Origin: Rhodanobacter sp.
GTDB taxonomy: Bacteria > Pseudomonadota > Gammaproteobacteria > Xanthomonadales > Rhodanobacteraceae
Direction: 5' to 3'
Assembly (NCBI GenBank): GCA_027307195.1
Contig: DAHUXL010000099.1
Span: 1-64,000 of the forward strand
DNA: 64,000 bases
Of the stretch, positions 12,563 to 53,836 are shown piece by piece; the stretch's first letter is position 1; every line of letters starts with the position of its first letter. The notes under the pieces are model-generated. The model searched no databases and was not told the origin of the DNA. It saw nothing but the letters and a program-made list of their open reading frames with translations. The position numbers and the translations under genes were made by a program.

Positions 12563-12817
12563 CCCCGGCGGGACCGCGGCACGCCGCGACACCCGCCGCC
12601 CGATCAGCCGGACGCGTCGCCCGCATCACGTTGATCTTTCACCACCACACAGCGGGCAACCCGCGGTGCACATGTGCGAGCACGAGTGGAACCTGCTCAG
12701 GGCCTGCCAGGCAGCTCTAAAGATTTTGCTGATCTTGCCGATTTTGTGGGTGTCGGCCGTTGTGATCCCCCTGGCCGGTTCCCCGCCTGACTTCCCCGTA
12801 CTTATGGATTCGTGCCC

Positions 12818-13180
12818 ATGAAAACTCTATTTGTTTCCGCCTTGCTGGCGTTCCTCCCGGTGGCAGCCCAGGCCGCCTGCGCACCCACCGATTTCGCCAT
12901 CAAGGAATTCAAACCCAGTGCCAATGGCTCGGGCGCGGCGGTCCGGCTCATGCTCAGTGGCGAACTGGTCAACAACTGTGCCGAGCCTTCCGCCGCGCAG
13001 ATCCGCATCGAAGCGAAGGATGCCAGCGGCAGCGTATTGCAGTCCAAGCAGGGCTGGCCGGCCGGCACCACCAACATCGCGCCTGGCGCATCGGCCAAGT
13101 TCGATCTCGGGCGGCAGTTCCGCTTTCAGTCGGAGATGGCCAGCTATACCGTCAGCGTAGTTGCCGTACGCGCCTGGTAA
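12818..13180 (+). CDS. Small secreted protein of unknown function
   Basis: Signal peptide MKTLFVSALLAFLPVAAQA plus ~100-aa beta-rich domain; followed by a strong terminator. Confidence 0.65.
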   Translation: MKTLFVSALLAFLPVAAQAACAPTDFAIKEFKPSANGSGAAVRLMLSGELVNNCAEPSAAQIRIEAKDASGSVLQSKQGWPAGTTNIAPGASAKFDLGRQFRFQSEMASYTVSVVAVRAW

Positions 13181-19338: not shown

Positions 19339-19845
19339 TCAGGCGGCAACTTCAACTTCCTGGACGGCCGGCAGAGCCGCCTCCAGCGTTTCCACGTCCT
19401 CTGGACGCATCAGCTTTTCCACGTCCAGCAGCATCACCATCCGCTCGGCACAGGTGGCAAGCCCCTTCAGATAACGCGTATCCACCACCGCACCCATGTC
19501 GGGCACCGGCTTGATCGCTGCCGGATCGATGTCGACCACATCGGAAACCGCGTCCACCACGATGCCGAACAGACGCTCGCCGATCGCAACGATGATCATC
19601 ACCGTGTCGTCGCCGTAGCTCTCGCGTTGCAGCCCGAAGCGCAGGCGCAGGTCCATGATCGGCACGATCGCGCCGCGCAGGTTCAGCACGCCCAGCACGT
19701 AATCCGGTGTCTGCGGAATGCGGGTGACGCGCGACCAGCTGCGGATCTCGCGCACGGCGAGGATGTCCACGCCATACTCTTCGCCGGCCAGGCTGAAGGT
19801 AAGTTGCTGCAACGGCGATGCCGTGGCCTGTTTGTCTTCGTACAT
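19339..19845 (-). CDS. cheW: Chemotaxis coupling protein CheW
   Basis: LTFSLAGEEYGVDILAVREI...YVLGVLNLRGAIVPIMDLR. Confidence 0.95.
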   Translation of the reverse strand: MYEDKQATASPLQQLTFSLAGEEYGVDILAVREIRSWSRVTRIPQTPDYVLGVLNLRGAIVPIMDLRLRFGLQRESYGDDTVMIIVAIGERLFGIVVDAVSDVVDIDPAAIKPVPDMGAVVDTRYLKGLATCAERMVMLLDVEKLMRPEDVETLEAALPAVQEVEVAA

Positions 19846-19940
19846 GGGTCTGCTACCTCGTGACGGGCGTCTGCGAACGTCCTGCTGCCTGATCTGTGTC
19901 GGCGTGGACGGCGGGAACTTGAGCACCCGCATGCCCTCGA

Positions 19941-22734: not shown

Positions 22735-22761
22735 TTATCGGCCGCAGCGCCGATCGCTTTA
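22735..22761 (-). promoter_or_regulatory. Sigma-28 (FliA) promoter for chemotaxis operon 1
   Basis: On the minus strand: TAAA-(15 nt GCGATCGGCGCTGCG)-GCCGATAA, exact match to the TAAA-N15-GCCGATAA consensus; 41 bp upstream of STAS start codon. Confidence 0.88.
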
Positions 22762-22837: not shown

Positions 22838-22864
22838 TCAAGTTTGCCCGTACAGCGCCGATGT
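22838..22864 (+). promoter_or_regulatory. Candidate sigma-28 promoter for fliK2-fhlB
   Basis: TCAAGTTT-N11-GCCGATGT; -10 lies only 4 bp before the predicted ATG. Confidence 0.55.
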
Positions 22865-22867
22865 CCT

Positions 22868-24061
22868 ATGCAGGACCAACTCATCCGAACGGTGCACGGC
22901 GACCCCGCGCAGGAACTCCTCTTGATCATTCAACCCACCAGCCTTGCCGCGCTCACCTGGGCCGGCGCTGCCGCCGGTACCAGTGCGCCAAGCTGGCGCA
23001 TCGGCGCCGTGCTGTCGGCGCGACCGCTGGGCGTCAATCCCCAGGGCATGCTGGTGTTGCAGATCGGCACCCTGAGCGTGGAGACCGAGATACCCGGCAG
23101 TCAGCTGCCGGCGCAATTCCAGGTGCGCGTGCTGAGTCTCGGGGCCCAGCCACAGCTGGAGGTGTTGCTGCCCCATCCGGCCGATCCAACCTTTCAGCGC
23201 ATCCTGCGCGAACGACTGCCGCAACAGAATGGTTATGCACCGCTGCTGGCCACGCTTGGCGCGCTGGCCCAGCGGCCGATGCTGCGTCAGCTGCCACCAT
23301 ACCTGCGCACCGCACTGGCCCTGCTCGAACATGTCGTGCGCACGCCTGCCGATATCACCACCGGCGAAGGCCTGCGCCTGGCGATCAGCCGCAGCGGTCT
23401 GTTTCTCGAATCACAACTGGCCCATCCGCAAGGCAATTTGACGACGCTGGTCGAGGAGGACTGGAAAGGCGCCCTGCTGCGACTGGTCGGGCTGCTCCAG
23501 CGACAGCCAACCGCTGGGCCAGCAGCGAACCGCAGCGACACGGCGCCGCCGCTGTTGCAGCGCGGCCTGCAGGCGCAAGCGCGATTGCCGCTGCCGATGG
23601 CCGCCGATGCCGATGACGTGAACCCTCTGCTCGATCGACTGTACGGTGACGTGAAAGCTGCCCTGGCACGGGTGGAAGTGGCTCAACTGGAAGCCAGCAC
23701 GTTGCCGGCCTGGATGATCGAAATTCCCCTGCAGGGACAAGGCGGTCGCGACGTGCTGCAGTTGCAGCTGGAATTCGTCACCGATGCCGCCGATGGCAGC
23801 CATGGCTGGACACTGGGCTTTGCACTGGACCTGCCGGCGTTGGGCCCGGTGCATGGGGAACTGCAATTGCGCGAACCGCGGCTATCGGTACGCCTGTGGG
23901 CCGAATATGCCGAGACCGCGCAACGACTGGAGCGCCAGTTCACTCCGCTGCGCCAGCGGCTGGCCGCCTGCGGCGTACTGCTCGATCAGCTGAGTTGCCA
24001 GGTCGGCCTGCCGCAACCGCAGAACCGGCACAGCGCCGTGCTGCTGAAGGCCACCGCGTGA
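22868..24061 (+). CDS. Second FliK-like (hook-length control C-terminal domain) protein
   Basis: C-terminal Flg_hook-like pattern (WTLGFALDLPALGPVHGELQLREPRLSVRLWAEYAETAQRLERQFTPLRQRLAACGVLLDQLSCQVG). Confidence 0.8.
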   Translation: MQDQLIRTVHGDPAQELLLIIQPTSLAALTWAGAAAGTSAPSWRIGAVLSARPLGVNPQGMLVLQIGTLSVETEIPGSQLPAQFQVRVLSLGAQPQLEVLLPHPADPTFQRILRERLPQQNGYAPLLATLGALAQRPMLRQLPPYLRTALALLEHVVRTPADITTGEGLRLAISRSGLFLESQLAHPQGNLTTLVEEDWKGALLRLVGLLQRQPTAGPAANRSDTAPPLLQRGLQAQARLPLPMAADADDVNPLLDRLYGDVKAALARVEVAQLEASTLPAWMIEIPLQGQGGRDVLQLQLEFVTDAADGSHGWTLGFALDLPALGPVHGELQLREPRLSVRLWAEYAETAQRLERQFTPLRQRLAACGVLLDQLSCQVGLPQPQNRHSAVLLKATA

Positions 24062-24312
24062 ACCCGCCCGCACCTGCCCAACGCCGGGTCAGCCTGAAAC
24101 TGGCCAGCGGCGCGAACGAACTCAAGGCGATGCCGGCCGAATCGCTGGACACCCTGCTTGCCCGCGCTCAGGCGCTGGGCCTGCCGCTGCATCACGACCC
24201 GCAGATCGCCGCGATGCTGGCCGCGCTGCGCCTGCGTGATGACGTTCCTGCCCTGCTCTATGCCGCGGCCGCATCGGTCCTGGCCGCGGTCTACGACGCG
24301 GCGGAAGAATAG
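24058..24312 (+). CDS. FhlB/FlhB C-terminal-domain-like protein (EscU/YscU/HrcU cytoplasmic domain family)
   Basis: GTGA start/stop overlap; VSLKLASGANELKAMPAESLDTLLARAQALGLPLHHDPQIAAMLAALRLRDDVPALLYAAAASVLAAVYDAAEE aligns by eye with C-terminal part of FlhB in this window ([41 protein letters not shown]). Confidence 0.78.
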   Translation: MNPPAPAQRRVSLKLASGANELKAMPAESLDTLLARAQALGLPLHHDPQIAAMLAALRLRDDVPALLYAAAASVLAAVYDAAEE

Positions 24313-24365: not shown

Positions 24366-24394
24366 AGGCGTCGCGACTGAGGTCGCTCCCACCA
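24366..24394 (-). repeat. REP-like palindromic element in convergent intergenic region
   Basis: AGGCGTCGCGACTGAGGTCGCTCCCACCA; contains GCGAC-TGAG-GTCGC hairpin; resembles dispersed GTGGGAGCGAC...GTCGCGAC elements of pseudomonads/xanthomonads. Confidence 0.55.
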
Positions 24395-24406
24395 GATCGT
24401 GCGAGT

Positions 24407-24766
24407 TCAGTGCGTGACCGGATGCAGCTGCCGGATCAGTCGCGCCTCGTCGCGCGTCAGCCCGCAGCGCGCGACCATCTGTTCAATGTCGGCGCCCTCG
24501 CGCGCCAGCTGCTGGGCCAGCTCATACGAGGTCGGCTTGACCGGTGCAGGCTGCTGCTCGATCCGGGCGATGCGCTGCTCCATGCGGCCCAATGCCGTCA
24601 CCAGCATGGCGGTCGGCACATCGGTCTGGACGGACAGGGAGACGCTGCCATCGAGGCGGGCAACGTCCTGCTTCAGCTGACGTGACTGACGCCATAGCTG
24701 CAACATCAACGTGGACTGCAGCAGGGCCAACAGCAGCAATACGCCGACGGCGATCTCAAGTGCCAT
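24407..24766 (-). CDS. DUF2802 membrane-anchored protein of polar flagellar/chemotaxis clusters
   Basis: N-terminal TM (IAVGVLLLLALLQSTLMLQLW), coiled coil, C-terminal YELAQQLAREGADIEQMVARCGLTRDEARLIRQLH. Confidence 0.8.
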   Translation of the reverse strand: MALEIAVGVLLLLALLQSTLMLQLWRQSRQLKQDVARLDGSVSLSVQTDVPTAMLVTALGRMEQRIARIEQQPAPVKPTSYELAQQLAREGADIEQMVARCGLTRDEARLIRQLHPVTH

Positions 24767-25268
24767 CGCCGCTCTCCCGCTGCAACCGGCACAGTCGGCG
24801 CACATCGAGCAGCGCGACGAAACCGCCTTGCCAGGCCAGCACGCCGCTCACCGGATCGTCGGTGCGGCTGGCGCGCCCGGGCGGTGGCGGAGCGATCTCG
24901 TGACCCTCGGTATGCAGCAGCTCGCCGATGTCGTCCACCCGCAGGCCGACCAGATGGTTGCCGTGCGACAGCATCACCACGCGGACCCGCTCCGGATCGG
25001 CCACCGGCAACAGCGGCAGACCCAGTCGCAAGTGACCGTCCAGCACCGGCACGATGCGCCCGCGCAGAAGACGGATGCCGAGCAGATCCGCGGCCGCGCC
25101 CGGCACCGGCGTGAGTTCGCCGATGCGGATGACTTCACTGACCTCGTTCAGCGGTGCCGCATACAGCTGTGCGCCGATCAGGAATGACAGCCAGTGCCGT
25201 TCCTGAGACTCGGCTACAGCAGCGACAGCACTCAATTCACTCACTCCCTTTTCGTTCGGCATCGTCAT
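24756..25268 (-). CDS. CheW-like coupling protein (cluster 2)
   Basis: WLSFLIGAQLYAAPLNEVSEVIRIGELTPVPGAAADLLGIRLLRGRIVPVLD. Confidence 0.88.
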   Translation of the reverse strand: MTMPNEKGVSELSAVAAVAESQERHWLSFLIGAQLYAAPLNEVSEVIRIGELTPVPGAAADLLGIRLLRGRIVPVLDGHLRLGLPLLPVADPERVRVVMLSHGNHLVGLRVDDIGELLHTEGHEIAPPPPGRASRTDDPVSGVLAWQGGFVALLDVRRLCRLQRESGDGT

Positions 25269-30110: not shown

Positions 30111-30839
30111 TCAACCGCGCCAGTCGGTCAGCCGCGCGCGCAGCCGGATGACCGCCTGCCCATGGATCTGGCAAATGCGTGACTCGCTCACCCCGAGCAC
30201 GGCGCCGATCTCCTTCAAGTTCAACTCCTGCTCGTAGTACAGCGACATCACCAGTTGTTCGCGTTCGGGCAAACCGCCGATTGCCTCGGCCAGCGCATCG
30301 CGCATGCCGTTGCGCTCAATGCTGTCGTGCGGATTCAGCGTGGCTTCGTCGATGACGTCCAGTACCGCACCGTCCTCGTTGTCGTCCGACGCGGTCAGGC
30401 TGAGCAGGCGTACGCAGGCGGCATCGGCGAGGATCTGGTGATACTCCTCCGCACTGATGCCGAGCCGCCGGATAACTTCGGCATCGTCCGCCTCGGCACC
30501 GGTTTCGGTCTCGACCTGGCGGATCACCTCGGCCACTTCGCGGGTCTTGCGATGCACCGAACGCGGCGTCCAGTCGGTACGCCGCAATTCGTCCAGCATC
30601 GCGCCACGAATGCGGATGCCCGCATAGGTTTCGAAACTGGCCCCGCGATCGAGGGTGTAATGGCGCGACGCTTCCAGCAAACCGATCATCCCAGCCTGTA
30701 CCAGATCACCCACGTCGACGCTGGCCGGCAGCCGCCCCATCAGGTGATAGGCGATCCGTCGTACCAGCGGTGCATGCCGACGTACCAGTTCGTCGGCGCT
30801 TTCGCGGGAATGTTGTAAATATTCCGAAGCCGCATTCAT
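30111..30839 (-). CDS. fliA: Flagellar sigma factor 28
   Basis: LVRRHAPLVRRIAYHLMGRLPASVDVGDLVQAGMIGLLEASRHYT...MSLYYEQELNLKEIGAVLGVSESRICQIHGQA. Confidence 0.97.
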   Translation of the reverse strand: MNAASEYLQHSRESADELVRRHAPLVRRIAYHLMGRLPASVDVGDLVQAGMIGLLEASRHYTLDRGASFETYAGIRIRGAMLDELRRTDWTPRSVHRKTREVAEVIRQVETETGAEADDAEVIRRLGISAEEYHQILADAACVRLLSLTASDDNEDGAVLDVIDEATLNPHDSIERNGMRDALAEAIGGLPEREQLVMSLYYEQELNLKEIGAVLGVSESRICQIHGQAVIRLRARLTDWRG

Positions 30840-30840
30840 C

Positions 30841-31791
30841 TCAGCACCCTGTCGCCGGTGTCGCCCGGCCACCAAAGAAGGCGATCCGGTCGCGGCCCGC
30901 GCGTTCGGGTTCTGCCCATGTATCGACCACACTGGCCAATTTCTTGAATGCCAGCGCCGAACGGCTGGAAGGCCACACATCGACCACCGCGCTCTGCCGC
31001 CGGATCGCTTGCCGCAGCCGCTCGTCATGCGGTATCCAGCCGGCAAAATCGATCACCACGTCGAGGAAGCGGTCGCTGACCCGCGACAATTTGCGATGCA
31101 GCTGGCGGGCCTCGCCTTCGTTCTGTGTCATGTTCGCGACCATGCGGAAACGGCGCACACCGAAGTCGCGGCTGAGCACCTTGGTCAGCGCATAGGCATC
31201 GGTCAGTGACGCTGGCTCGTCGCACACCACCAGCACCACGTCGTCGGCGGCGGCGGCAAGCATCGACACGTTGTCGGACAGGCCCGCGGCGGTGTCCACC
31301 AGCAGGTATTGCGGCGGCTGCGCCAGCTCGTCGAACGCGCGGATGATCGCAGCGTGCTCACCGTTGTCCAGTTGCGCCAGCCGGCGCGCACCGGAGCCGG
31401 CCGGAATCACCCGCAGCCCGTGCGCGGCGGTCAGCAGCAGATCCTCCAGCGTGCAGTTGCCATCGAGCAGGTGACCGATATGCCGCGACGGCGTAAGCCC
31501 GAGCAGCACATCGACATTGGCCATGCCCAGGTCGGCATCCAGCAGGATCACATCGCGGCCGGCCATCGACAGCGCCATGCCAAGATTCACCGCGACCGTG
31601 CTCTTGCCGACACCGCCCTTGCCACCAGCCACGGCGATCGTGCGGCAGTGATGCCGTGGCAACACCGAGCCCCTCAGCAGGGTACTGGCCTGATGACCCA
31701 TCGACATGGCCTCCGGCGCGCCCCGTCCGACCATCGCCGAAAACATGTGCGTCAGTCCCCACGCCTGATCCATTGCGAGTGCTTCGCTCAT
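30841..31791 (-). CDS. fleN: Flagellar number regulator, MinD/ParA-like ATPase
   Basis: AVAGGKGGVGKSTVAVNLGMALSMAGRDVILLDADLGMANVDVLLGL. Confidence 0.95.
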   Translation of the reverse strand: MSEALAMDQAWGLTHMFSAMVGRGAPEAMSMGHQASTLLRGSVLPRHHCRTIAVAGGKGGVGKSTVAVNLGMALSMAGRDVILLDADLGMANVDVLLGLTPSRHIGHLLDGNCTLEDLLLTAAHGLRVIPAGSGARRLAQLDNGEHAAIIRAFDELAQPPQYLLVDTAAGLSDNVSMLAAAADDVVLVVCDEPASLTDAYALTKVLSRDFGVRRFRMVANMTQNEGEARQLHRKLSRVSDRFLDVVIDFAGWIPHDERLRQAIRRQSAVVDVWPSSRSALAFKKLASVVDTWAEPERAGRDRIAFFGGRATPATGC

Positions 31792-35311: not shown

Positions 35312-36451
35312 TCATGGCTCGCGGTAAGGCCCCATCAGGTCGGGATCGACCTCGGGGGTGGGCGCCGCCGGCGGTGTCTCGCCGTGCGCCGTCGCCTGTT
35401 TCAACTGGTACACGTAGGCCAGTACCTGGGCCACGGCGACATACAGCGCCGCGGGAATTTCCCGGCCGATTTCGGTGGTGGCATACAAGGCGCGTGCCAA
35501 CGGTGGCGCCTCCACCAGCGGGATGCGATGACTGCTGGCGACCATGCGGATCTGCTGCGCCAGCAGATCGACACCCTTGGCAATCACTCGCGGTGCGCCC
35601 ATGCGGCCGTCGTCGTACCGCAGCGCCACGGCGAAATGGGAGGGGTTGACCACCACCACGTCGGCCTTGGGCAGCTCCTCCATCATGCGGCGACGCGATT
35701 GCTGCTGCTGGACCTGGCGAATGCGCCCCTTCATTTCAGGATTGCCCTCGCCCTCCTTCATCTCGTCGCGCACTTCCTGCTTGGTCATGCGCAGGCGTTT
35801 GGCGTGATCGAATTTCTGGTATAGCGCATCGATGCCGCCGATCAACGCCAGCATCGTGCCGAACCACAACGCCGCGCGGCCGAGCAAGCCGATCGATTGC
35901 GCGATCCCCTCCATCACCGCGCCGCGGCCGGTAGCCTGCAACTCGGCCTGCCAGTGCCGCAGCAACAACCCCAGCACGGCTCCGATGAACAACAACTTGA
36001 GCAGTGCCTTGCCCAGCTCGACCAGTCCGCGCATGGCGAAAATCCGGCCCAGTCCCGTGAGCGGATCGATCCGCTCGAATTTCGGCTGCAACGCCTGCGC
36101 GCTGAAGTTCAGGCCACCCAGCAATAACGGCGCCGCCACCGTGGCGAGCATCGTCGCCACGGCCACCGGCCAGAACAGACCGAGTGCTTCGTGCACCGCC
36201 GCATGCAATGCCCGCCCTGGCAACGCATCGGAAAACAAGGCTTCGCGGGAATATCCAAGGCCCATCGAAAAGATGCGTCGCGTATGCAGGAACGCCGCTT
36301 CGCCGCTATTCATCAACGCTGCCACGCCGGCAAGCACCACCATCGCACCGGACAGGTCACGCGAACGCGGAACCTCGCCCTTCTCGCGTGATTCGCGCAA
36401 GCGCTTTTCGGAGGGTTGTTCGGTTTTTTCCTGGTCGCTTTCTTCCGACAC
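35312..36451 (-). CDS. flhB: Flagellar type III export switch protein FlhB (NPSH variant)
   Basis: EKTEQPSEKRLRESREKGEVPRSRDLSGA; VVVNPSHFAVALRYDDGRMGAPRVIAKG. Confidence 0.97.
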   Translation of the reverse strand: MSEESDQEKTEQPSEKRLRESREKGEVPRSRDLSGAMVVLAGVAALMNSGEAAFLHTRRIFSMGLGYSREALFSDALPGRALHAAVHEALGLFWPVAVATMLATVAAPLLLGGLNFSAQALQPKFERIDPLTGLGRIFAMRGLVELGKALLKLLFIGAVLGLLLRHWQAELQATGRGAVMEGIAQSIGLLGRAALWFGTMLALIGGIDALYQKFDHAKRLRMTKQEVRDEMKEGEGNPEMKGRIRQVQQQQSRRRMMEELPKADVVVVNPSHFAVALRYDDGRMGAPRVIAKGVDLLAQQIRMVASSHRIPLVEAPPLARALYATTEIGREIPAALYVAVAQVLAYVYQLKQATAHGETPPAAPTPEVDPDLMGPYREP

Positions 36452-40860: not shown

Positions 40861-41994
40861 TCAGGCAAAGGCATCCAGCAGGCCGACCGCGCCGATCGAT
40901 GCGCGCAGGTCGACGCCATGGACTTCGTCGGTAGCGTCCATGGCGGCATCGTTCGGGGTAGCGCCGCCGCGCCCATGGTTCTTGCCGTGATCGTGCTGAC
41001 CGACTTCGGCATGCCCAAGTGACAGCCCCTGCTGGGTGAGCATCTGCCCAAGCTGGGACAGGCTCTGCTGGATTGCCGTGACCGCCGCCGGATGCTGGGC
41101 ACTGAACACTACGTCGACCCGGTCATGCGACACGTTGATCTTGACGTCGAGCTGGCCGAGCTCCTCCGGATGCAACCGGATGCGCGCCTGCTTGACATCC
41201 TGACCAGTCAGCCAGACCACCTGCTGGCCCAACTCGTGCGCAAACGCCTGGCTGCCAACCGACGACGGCAGCTGCAGTTGATGGGTCACTGCCGGCGCGG
41301 CCGTGACGACCGTTGCAGGCAAGCCGAGCACCGAGGCCAGATCAGCGGAGCGATCCGCTGCCTTGGCGACGGCTGGCAGCTCGACCTCATCGCCCGCCGG
41401 CTGCGTGCCAGCGCTCGCTAGAACCGTGCCGATCGCCGTGGCGGCGCTCCCGCTGTCCAGCGCATTCGCCTGCAGCCACGCAGCGGCGCCGGCATCGCTG
41501 GTCACGGTCTTGCCGGCGGTACCAGTGTTGGCAGGGCTTGCGGTATCGCCAGCCGACGTCGCGGCGGCAACCGCTGGGGCAACTCCGCTGGACAGCCCGA
41601 GCAGGGCCAGCATGCTGCCGGCCAATGCCGCGCCGGCCTGATCGCCCTCAACATCGGTATCACGGCCCGGATCGGCTTGATGACTGCTCGCCGCCGTCGC
41701 CACCGTCGTCGCCGTCGTCGCTGTTGCTGCACCGGTCAATGGCGTGGTTGCCGTACCACTGGCATCCGCGACCGTTGCCTGCGGTGAAGCGTCGGCCTGA
41801 GCGCCCTTCGATGCATGGATCGACCGGGGTGACGACGCATCGGCCGAATCCTGGGCTGGCTCGCGTTGCTGTCGTGCGGCATGCAGCTGGCGATCGAAAC
41901 GATCCGTGGACGCCGACGACTCGCGCGGACCGGCTGCAGCGGCACGCGGTGCCACCGGCGCAGCGGTTGGGGGTACAACAGCGGATGCGGTCAT
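40861..41994 (-). CDS. fliK: Flagellar hook-length control protein FliK
   Basis: Ala/Thr-rich N-terminus, C-terminal Flg_hook domain (VKQARIRLHPEELGQLDVKINVSHDRVDVVFSAQHPAAVTAIQQSLSQLGQML). Confidence 0.92.
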   Translation of the reverse strand: MTASAVVPPTAAPVAPRAAAAGPRESSASTDRFDRQLHAARQQREPAQDSADASSPRSIHASKGAQADASPQATVADASGTATTPLTGAATATTATTVATAASSHQADPGRDTDVEGDQAGAALAGSMLALLGLSSGVAPAVAAATSAGDTASPANTGTAGKTVTSDAGAAAWLQANALDSGSAATAIGTVLASAGTQPAGDEVELPAVAKAADRSADLASVLGLPATVVTAAPAVTHQLQLPSSVGSQAFAHELGQQVVWLTGQDVKQARIRLHPEELGQLDVKINVSHDRVDVVFSAQHPAAVTAIQQSLSQLGQMLTQQGLSLGHAEVGQHDHGKNHGRGGATPNDAAMDATDEVHGVDLRASIGAVGLLDAFA

Positions 41995-52289: not shown

Positions 52290-53717
52290 TTACTGCAGCA
52301 GCTTGAGCACGCTCTGGGTGGACGAGTTGGCCTGTGCGAGCACCGACACGCCAGCCTGTTGCAGGATGTTCGCGCTGGACATGTTCGCGGTTTCCGCGGC
52401 GAAGTCGGCATCCTGGATCTGGCTGCGCGACGAGCTGAGGTTCTGCGAAATGGTCTGCAGGTTGGCGATGGTGGAGCTGAAGCGGTTCTGCACCGCGCCG
52501 AGGTTGCTGCGCATGCCGCTGACCGTGGACAGCGCGGCGTCGATGCGGTTGATCGTGGCGTTGGCGCCACTTACGGTCAGCACGTTCGCCGAGGCCAGGG
52601 TCTTGGTGGTGTCGAGGGCGATATTCGCCGAGAAGCCGATGTCGGCCGACTGTGAACCGGAGAACGTGATGGCGGATGCGGCACTCAGCGAGAGTGTGCC
52701 ATGAGTATTCGCAACCATGCCTGCGGCGAGGCCGCCCGTGGCGCCGCCGCCCAGCGTCTGGGTGACGTTGATATCACGGCCGTCGACAGTCGACAGGGTC
52801 ATGTTGCCGCCCGCGTCCACAGCCGCGGTCACGCCGGTCTGGGTGGAGTAGGCATTGATCTGCGCAACCACCATGCTACCTGTCAACGCGCCACCCGAGG
52901 TATCGGTACCCGCGGCGTAGATATCCTGGCCGTTGATGTTCAACGCAAAGGTGTTGCCGGCGGCACCGCCGGTGCTGGTGAATGCGCCACTGACCGAGCT
53001 GCTGGCCGTGGCGGTCAAACCGGAAACATTGGACGCGTTGATCGCTGCAGCTTTCGCGTACGCGCTGCCGGCGCCCTGGCCGGCCGAGGGACCGGCCACC
53101 GAGGCAGCGATATTGGTGACTGCACCAGTACCCACCTGGATTTTCAGATTGCTGGCCACCAGCGCGTTGGTCGTTACGGCGGTGCCGGTGCCGGCGGCAA
53201 GCGAACCCATCTGGTCGGCACGTGCACCCTGGCTGAGGTTCACCGAAATCGTTTCGCCGACGTTGGCGCCGACCTGGAACGCGGCGTTGCCGAAGCTGCC
53301 GTCGAGCACATGGCGGCCGTTGAAGCTGGTCTGGGTCGAAATACGGGTGATTTCCGCCAGACGCTGCTGCACTTCGGCGTCGAGCGCGGCGCGGTCGCTG
53401 TCGGAGTTGGTGGCGTTGGCCGACTGTACCGCCAGCGTACGAATGCGCTGCATGTTGTTGGTCACCTCGTTCAGCGCCGACTCGGTGGTCTGCGCCAGCG
53501 AGATGCCGTCGTTGGCATTGCTGACTGCCTGGTTCAGGCCGTTGATCTGGGTGGTGAAGCGGGTCGAGATGGCGAGGCCGGCAGCATCGTCCTTCGCGCT
53601 GTTGATGCGCATGCCCGAGGACAGGCGCTCGATGGCGGTTGCGAGTTTGCTCTGCGAGGTGGCCAGGTTCTTCTGGGCATTCAGCGAGCTGATGTTGGTG
53701 ATGACACTCATGACCAT
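52290..53717 (-). CDS. fliC: Flagellin
   Basis: SVITNISSLNAQKNLATSQSKLATAIERLSSGMRINSAKDDAAGLAISTRF and C-terminal D0/D1 helices; GGAG is 7 nt from ATG at 53717 (alternative ATG at 53711). Confidence 0.98.
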   Translation of the reverse strand: MVMSVITNISSLNAQKNLATSQSKLATAIERLSSGMRINSAKDDAAGLAISTRFTTQINGLNQAVSNANDGISLAQTTESALNEVTNNMQRIRTLAVQSANATNSDSDRAALDAEVQQRLAEITRISTQTSFNGRHVLDGSFGNAAFQVGANVGETISVNLSQGARADQMGSLAAGTGTAVTTNALVASNLKIQVGTGAVTNIAASVAGPSAGQGAGSAYAKAAAINASNVSGLTATASSSVSGAFTSTGGAAGNTFALNINGQDIYAAGTDTSGGALTGSMVVAQINAYSTQTGVTAAVDAGGNMTLSTVDGRDINVTQTLGGGATGGLAAGMVANTHGTLSLSAASAITFSGSQSADIGFSANIALDTTKTLASANVLTVSGANATINRIDAALSTVSGMRSNLGAVQNRFSSTIANLQTISQNLSSSRSQIQDADFAAETANMSSANILQQAGVSVLAQANSSTQSVLKLLQ

Positions 53718-53809: not shown

Positions 53810-53836
53810 GTTTCGACGCCCACCACCGAAACTTGA
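53810..53836 (-). promoter_or_regulatory. Sigma-28 promoter of fliC
   Basis: Minus strand TCAAGTTT-N11-GTCGAAAC. Confidence 0.72.

What the first reader, a model, noticed from the sequence alone, without database searches (positions are those of the whole stretch)
22838..24312. Second FliK-like protein paired with a free FlhB-C-terminal-like protein (FhlB) on the opposite strand between two chemotaxis blocks
Seen: a 398-aa protein with a FliK-type C-terminal domain overlaps (GTGA) an 85-aa protein that aligns by eye with the C-terminal part of FlhB's cytoplasmic domain, including the A..LYA..A.VLA.VY end. This is the only plus-strand pair in the ~50 kb motility island, which also encodes canonical fliK (40861-41994) and flhB (35312-36451). 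Knowledge: FliK and FlhB together form the hook-length/export-specificity switch, and FhlB-type orphan domains are known but poorly characterised. Inference: this may be a second, separable switch module, for example a timing modulator, a decoy for FliK1/FlhB, or a late-substrate gate expressed only after FliA activation.
Basis: partly seen in the sequence, partly recalled or inferred. Interest (0 to 1): 0.65.

Follow-up and report, generated by a model that had tools for sequence, protein, structure and literature searches.

The report
Late-expressed second FliK with free FlhB tail
Next to the genes that steer and build its flagellum, this soil bacterium carries a conserved two-gene unit, probably switched on only after the flagellar hook is finished, that encodes a second copy of the hook-length switch protein FliK and a free-standing copy of the piece of FlhB that FliK acts on; most flagellated relatives have it, but the best-studied model (Salmonella) appears not to, so its function is untested.

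Summary
FliK2 has a significant Flg_hook domain (Pfam 8.9e-15). FhlB is homologous to the cleaved C-terminal part of FlhB. They overlap by GTGA. FliK2 starts at TTG 22922 (379 aa), not at ATG 22868, which lies just after a sigma28 (FliA) promoter at 22838-22864. That promoter occurs upstream of fliK2 in all 38 Rhodanobacteraceae sequences with enough upstream DNA.

The pair is not a decayed duplicate. Both genes are under purifying selection. In 187 gammaproteobacterial genomes, 68 of 73 with two FlhB-type hits also have a second Flg_hook hit, and all 48 second Flg_hook genes checked are followed by fhlB.

FliK2 is predicted to be folded, not a disordered ruler. Its penultimate residue is never aromatic (0/62), unlike FliK1 (21/21). 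Rhodanobacteraceae FhlB has lost the Ala-Pro half of FlhB's early-substrate pocket (0/26, against 39/39 elsewhere), and the FliK2 tail changed D/N to K/Q/R there.

Best explanation: a second FliK-FlhB(CC) module acting after hook completion, with FhlB as a spare CC domain and FliK2 as its dedicated partner. The module and its timing are well supported by sequence; the mechanism is inferred.

The parts
22838..22864 (+). sigma28 (FliA) promoter TCAAGTTT-N11-GCCGATGT of fliK2-fhlB
   Evidence: 13/16 match to TAAAGTTT-N11-GCCGATAA; present at 47-62 nt upstream of the fliK2 start in 38/38 scorable Rhodanobacteraceae sequences (the window and 37 other loci), elements conserved and spacer not. A weight matrix built without this site ranks it first in the window, with the flagellin upstream site 4th. 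The bare pattern count in the whole genome (4, against 3 for the reversed pattern) is not enriched, so the evidence is conservation and position.
22911..22915 (+). ribosome-binding site AGGAA, 6 nt before TTG 22922
   Evidence: read directly; AGGA(G) at this place in nearly all relatives
22922..24061 (+). fliK2, 379 aa, TTG start: predicted beta-barrel (about 30-82), helical domain (89-193), long helix plus FliK-type switch domain (234-361), flexible tail
   Evidence: start; AlphaFold2 mean pLDDT 81, pTM 0.71; conserved over its length in relatives
23801..24022 (+). Flg_hook (FliK C-terminal switch) domain of FliK2
   Evidence: PF02120 8.9e-15; profile match to FliK C-domain structure 2RRL 8.8e-6; Foldseek top hits 2RRL and the PscP switch domain 5CUK, probability 1.00 though E-values are only 0.04-0.06
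24041..24058 (+). FliK2 C-terminal tail LLKATA, in place of the canonical D/S-x-[FY]-[AV] end
   Evidence: FliK1 21/21 aromatic at -2; FliK2 0/62; position -4 D/N in 34/39 other families, K/Q/R in 23/23 Rhodanobacteraceae
24058..24312 (+). fhlB, 84 aa, GTG start overlapping the fliK2 stop (GTGA): free-standing FlhB-CC-like domain without transmembrane part and without NPTH
   Evidence: ATGA overlap at the same place in nearly all relatives
22735..22761 (-). divergent sigma28 promoter TAAAG-N14-GCCGATAA of the STAS-cheY-cheA block
   Evidence: 13/13 match; conserved (>=11/13) in 29 of 33 relatives
24407..24805 (-). fipA (DUF2802), polar-flagellum determinant, convergent neighbour
   Evidence: PF10975 4.9e-13; FipA carries this domain in PMC11620751
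24756..25268 (-). cheW
   Evidence: PF01584 6.3e-26
30111..31046 (-). fliA (sigma28) gene in the same island
   Evidence: Sigma70 regions 2, 3 and 4
35312..36451 (-). canonical flhB (cleavage site NPSH, keeps GAPRVIAKG)
   Evidence: Pfam 4e-120; sequence
40861..41994 (-). canonical fliK (FliK1): low-complexity N-terminal part, tail LLDAFA
   Evidence: Pfam 1.2e-21; composition; tail

Best explanation
fliK2-fhlB is a functional, translationally coupled accessory module of the flagellar export-specificity switch. FhlB is a pre-cut, soluble copy of the FlhB-CC domain. FliK2 is a folded, non-ruler FliK relative whose C-terminal switch domain and altered tail are most likely matched to FhlB rather than to FlhB-CC. 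In Rhodanobacteraceae a sigma28 promoter makes the pair a late product. In Salmonella, FliK ejects the native FlhB-CC when the hook is complete, as sigma28 genes come on. I infer that FhlB then occupies the vacated seat on the remaining FlhB and that FliK2 governs its loading or removal, so that the pair maintains or fine-tunes the gate in late (flagellin) mode instead of setting hook length. Shown here: domains, operon, promoter conservation, co-occurrence, tail and pocket changes. Inferred: FliK2-FhlB binding, docking on FlhB, and the effect on late export.
For: Domains. Conserved sigma28 promoter and start. Stop-start overlap in nearly all relatives. Purifying selection, median dN/dS about 0.28 (FhlB) and 0.30 (FliK2). 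Of 107 gammaproteobacterial genomes with any hit, 68 have two FlhB-type plus at least two Flg_hook hits, 5 the first only, 1 the second only (Fisher p 4e-21); 48/48 listed second Flg_hook genes are followed by fhlB on the same strand within 300 nt. Shared location beside chemotaxis/motor genes in many families. FliK2 predicted folded, unlike FliK1 by composition. FhlB lacks NPTH in 65/65 and so starts where FlhB-CC starts. Pocket residues: A341 equivalent 48/48 Ala, L344 equivalent Leu/Ile; the Ala-Pro half was lost only where the FliK2 tail changed D/N to K/Q/R. Literature: FlhB-CC loss accompanies hook completion and sigma28 activation, and the last FliK residues act on FlhB-CC (PMC13344023); FlhB pocket A286/P287/A341/L344 (PMC9307174); HP1575 can stand in for deleted FlhB-CC in H. 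pylori (Wand 2006, seen here only as a cited title).
Against: No expression, interaction or phenotype data. The FhlB model is poor (pLDDT 59) and no complex could be modelled. In 39 other families only 6 have a sigma28-like pair upstream (0.4 expected), so late timing is not shown to be general. The pocket/tail co-change is one evolutionary event and may be coincidence. FhlB in Rhodanobacteraceae lacks part of the substrate pocket, so full replacement of FlhB-CC is unlikely there. Outside Gammaproteobacteria FhlB had a detectable FliK neighbour in only 11 of 20 loci.
Confidence: 0.4

Rival explanations
1. Decoy/titration: FhlB, made late, binds FliK1 or other export proteins in the cytoplasm and stops new basal bodies from switching, limiting flagellar number; FliK2 modulates FhlB.
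For: FhlB is soluble and CC-like; late promoter; genomes with FhlB more often have FipA, a polar-flagellum determinant (64/73 against 22/33, p 0.016).
Against: FliK1 tails are canonical while FliK2 tails changed together with FhlB, which points to FliK2 as the partner. The FipA association is modest.
Confidence: 0.2
2. Chaperone pair: FhlB is a dedicated partner or inhibitor of FliK2 in the cytoplasm, and FliK2 is the active component, for example a checkpoint on late substrate export or a minor secreted factor.
For: Near-obligate adjacency and overlap; FliK2 has conserved folded N-terminal domains of its own.
Against: FhlB conserves FlhB-specific pocket features in 39 other families, more than a generic chaperone would need.
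Confidence: 0.2
3. Second ruler: FliK2 is an alternative hook-length protein.
For: Flg_hook domain.
Against: Folded N-terminal part rather than the low-complexity ruler seen in FliK1; tail differs from every canonical FliK examined; promoter is late.
Confidence: 0.05
4. Decayed duplication without function.
For: None found, except that one relative (L032) has an in-frame internal deletion in fhlB.
Against: Purifying selection on both genes; conserved promoter, start and overlap; co-occurrence across families.
Confidence: 0.03

Closest known systems
FhlB/FlhX, HP1575 of Helicobacter pylori ('spare part' for FlhB-CC; Wand et al. 2006, J Bacteriol 188:7531, seen here only as a cited title)
   Same: A free-standing homologue of the C-terminal part of FlhB, without transmembrane domain.
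   Different: Here it is coupled to a second FliK and has a sigma28 promoter, and it has lost the Ala-Pro...AKG segment that 39 of 39 other gammaproteobacterial FhlBs keep. Whether HP1575 has such a partner was not tested here.
Canonical FliK of Salmonella and FliK1 of this window
   Same: C-terminal Flg_hook switch domain.
   Different: N-terminal part folded, not a disordered ruler; tail lacks the aromatic penultimate residue.
[quoted passage not shown] structure 3B0Z)
   Same: Sequence homology over the CC domain, E 1.1e-16 for the family profile; A341 and L344 equivalents kept.
   Different: Separate gene, no NPTH, no linker or membrane part; the window protein lacks the A286-P287 equivalents.
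YlqG-YlqH of Bacillus subtilis (from memory, not tested)
   Same: Recalled as a FliK-like plus FlhB-CC-like neighbouring pair. TIGR00789 finds a match in B. subtilis, but the search does not say whether that match is FlhB or YlqH.
   Different: Distant; not compared here.
PscP/HpaC-type switch (T3S4) domains of injectisomes
   Same: Fold of the switch domain: 5CUK is the second Foldseek hit, probability 1.00.
   Different: Injectisome, not flagellar; I know of no free SctU-CC partner (general knowledge).

Membership tests
FliK (flagellar hook-length control) | Flg_hook C-terminal domain | tested here: met
   PF02120 54.7 bits, cut-off 29.8
FliK (flagellar hook-length control) | Long disordered N-terminal ruler | tested here: not met
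   Most of residues 23-361 predicted folded; composition differs from FliK1
FliK (flagellar hook-length control) | C-terminal tail D/S-x-[FY]-[AV], in the region needed for switching | tested here: not met
   LLKATA in the window; 0/62 FliK2 aromatic at -2, 21/21 FliK1
FliK (flagellar hook-length control) | Exported through the flagellum | not testable with these tools
   no secretion assay
FhlB / FlhB-like (TIGR00789) | Homology to the FlhB C-terminal domain as a stand-alone protein | tested here: met
   E 5.7e-5 for the window protein (23 bits, below the curated cut-off of 117; no genome of 187 reaches that cut-off either); profile of relatives 1e-17 to FlhB structures
FhlB / FlhB-like (TIGR00789) | AP-x-V-x-A-K-G segment (FlhB A286-P287 half of the pocket) | tested here: not met
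   0/26 Rhodanobacteraceae; present in 39/39 other families, one of them (L120) with AAG in place of AKG
FlhB proper (autocleaving switch protein) | Four transmembrane helices and NPTH cleavage site | tested here: not met
   84 aa, no NPTH-like motif in 65/65
sigma28 (FliA) regulon | Conserved sigma28 promoter | tested here: met
   38/38 scorable Rhodanobacteraceae sequences; weight matrix also finds the flagellin upstream site
sigma28 (FliA) regulon | Transcription lost in a fliA mutant | not testable with these tools
   no expression data

The most novel reading that the evidence does not exclude
A widespread, so far unstudied second FliK-FlhB(CC) switch acts after hook completion in most flagellated Gammaproteobacteria: FhlB replaces the ejected FlhB-CC and FliK2 removes or installs it, so the export gate has more than two states or can be reset. 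Rhodanobacteraceae carry a rewired version with a changed pocket and a compensating tail.
Probability: 0.25. Interest if true: 0.8.

Novelty: new variant of a known kind. Interest (0 to 1): 0.5.

Why it matters
The current model of the flagellar secretion switch rests on Salmonella, which from general knowledge is not known to carry this pair. About two thirds of the flagellated gammaproteobacterial genomes sampled have a second FliK and a free FlhB-CC in one operon. If FhlB refills the gate after the native domain is ejected, the switch is not a one-way event, and the free, separately encoded domain makes this testable by simple deletions. The tail signature also tells FliK2 from FliK in annotation, where both carry the same family name.

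Tried and rejected
Start at ATG 22868: rejected, as most relatives have no in-frame ATG there and it lies just after the promoter. FliK2 as a recent copy of FliK1: rejected, BLASTP finds no meaningful similarity and the pair is spread over many families. L032 as lacking fhlB: rejected, it has fhlB with an in-frame deletion. Sigma28 control as a general feature of the pair: not supported, 7 of 40 by one test, 6 of 39 by another. Plain genome-wide count of the promoter pattern: uninformative. Structure of FhlB alone: low confidence. Fold search for the N-terminal part of FliK2: no match. Searches for papers on the pair (FhlB, YlqH, FlhX, FliK-like, P. putida locus tags) found none that describes it in the open library. 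A sigma70 promoter or terminator around the pair: none found.

Full report
The finding. Both are there. The large protein has a Flg_hook domain well above the Pfam cut-off (8.9e-15). The small one matches TIGR00789 'FlhB-like flagellar biosynthesis protein' (5.7e-5) and the window's own FlhB (3e-5). On its own it falls below the curated cut-offs, but a profile of its relatives matches solved structures of the FlhB cytoplasmic domain at 1e-17 to 1e-15. FliK1 and FliK2 of the window are not detectably similar by BLASTP, so this is not a recent duplication.

Relatives. A genome scan gave 38 loci, all Rhodanobacteraceae by name or similarity (Rhodanobacter, Dyella, Frateuria and unnamed MAGs). fhlB follows fliK2 in every one: 37 were found by tblastn, and the 38th, L032, has fhlB with an in-frame internal deletion. 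The fliK2 stop overlaps the fhlB start (ATGA in relatives, GTGA in the window) in nearly all, which suggests translational coupling. Both genes evolve under purifying selection, median dN/dS about 0.28 for fhlB and 0.30 for fliK2.

Start and promoter. This is the sigma28 (FliA) promoter type. A weight matrix trained without the window site scores the window site highest of the whole window, and its fourth hit lies upstream of the flagellin gene, an expected sigma28 target. The bare pattern is not enriched genome-wide (4 against 3 for the reversed pattern), so the case rests on conservation and position. The gene therefore runs from TTG 22922 to 24061 (379 aa). A divergent sigma28 promoter for the neighbouring STAS-cheY-cheA block lies at 22735-22761 and is conserved in 29 of 33 relatives. 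The sigma28 gene itself is in the island (30111-31046).

Distribution. In 187 gammaproteobacterial genomes drawn evenly over the class, 106 have FlhB-type hits and 106 have Flg_hook hits. Two FlhB-type hits (FlhB plus FhlB) and at least two Flg_hook hits go together: 68 genomes have both, 5 only the first, 1 only the second, 33 neither (Fisher p 4e-21). This classification counts hits rather than inspecting each gene. All 48 second Flg_hook genes that could be paired from the listed rows are followed by fhlB on the same strand within 300 nt. Of 40 loci read in full, 39 have the pair adjacent; these loci were chosen from FliK2 or FhlB hits, so this figure describes arrangement, not frequency. 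In many of them cheW, motD, motC and cheB lie convergent to the pair, as in the window. FhlB also occurs in other classes of the phylum, where 11 of 20 loci have a FliK-type gene just upstream.

FliK2 as a protein. AlphaFold2 gives a confident fold (pLDDT 81, pTM 0.71): a small beta-barrel, a helical domain, and a long helix leading into a FliK-type switch domain, with flexible ends. Foldseek's two best hits are the FliK C-domain (2RRL) and the PscP switch domain (5CUK), both with probability 1.00 but E-values of only 0.04-0.06, and nothing matches the N-terminal part; the sequence profile supports 2RRL independently (8.8e-6). FliK1 has a low-complexity N-terminal part, as expected of a ruler. 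The last residues of FliK are required for the switch in Salmonella (PMC13344023). In 21 FliK1 proteins the penultimate residue is always Tyr or Phe; in 62 FliK2 proteins it never is.

FhlB as a protein. It begins about where cleaved FlhB-CC begins and has no NPTH-like site in 65 of 65. Salmonella FlhB docks early substrates in a pocket formed by A286, P287, A341 and L344 (PMC9307174). The A341 and L344 equivalents are kept in FhlB (48/48 Ala; Leu or Ile). The A286-P287 equivalents are kept in 39 of 39 other gammaproteobacterial families sampled (one with Thr-Pro, one with AAG after the AP) but lost in 26 of 26 Rhodanobacteraceae. In the same family FliK2's residue -4 changed from D/N (34/39 elsewhere) to K/Q/R (23/23). 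This hints that tail and pocket interact, but it is a single evolutionary event.

Mechanism. In Salmonella, FlhB-CC keeps the gate in early mode and is lost, dependent on FliK, when the hook is complete and sigma28 genes turn on (PMC13344023). HP1575, a free FlhB-CC homologue, can stand in for a deleted FlhB-CC in H. pylori (Wand 2006, seen here as a cited title). In Rhodanobacteraceae, FhlB would be made just when the native domain is lost. The most economical reading is that FhlB can take the vacant place and that FliK2, a folded FliK with a different tail, is its dedicated partner. Every step after 'made late' is inference. In other families a sigma28-like site is present upstream in only 6 of 39 (0.4 expected), so the timing may differ there.

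Literature. Ten searches of an open-access library found no paper on the pair; most subscription papers are not held, so this is weak evidence of novelty. FipA (DUF2802), the convergent neighbour, was characterised in 2024 as a polar-flagellum determinant (PMC11620751).

Verdict. A real, conserved and, as far as searched, unstudied accessory module of a known kind, with a derived version in this family.

Noticed in passing
window 22735-22761, minus strand: Perfect sigma28 promoter TAAAG-N14-GCCGATAA for the STAS-cheY-cheA block, head to head with the fliK2 promoter; conserved in 29 of 33 relatives.
   Followed up: yes
window 53810-53836, minus strand: Sigma28-like site upstream of the flagellin gene 52290-53717.
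   Followed up: partly
window 12718-12744, plus strand: Sigma28-like site TAAAGATT-N11-GCCGATTT with a high matrix score upstream of a 122-aa ORF (12812-13180) without Pfam match.
   Followed up: partly
window 19896-19922, minus strand: Second-best sigma28-like site, at the start of the cheW gene 19339-19932.
   Followed up: no
window 24366-24395: REP-like palindrome (GCGACTGAGGTCGC) just downstream of fhlB, single in the window.
   Followed up: no
window 35312-36451, minus strand: Canonical FlhB has NPSH instead of NPTH at the cleavage site.
   Followed up: no
L032:7161-7370: fhlB with an in-frame deletion of the central region, although fliK2 and its promoter are intact.
   Followed up: partly
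window 24407-24805, minus strand: fipA (DUF2802); among flagellated genomes FipA is somewhat more frequent where FhlB is present (64/73 against 22/33).
   Followed up: partly
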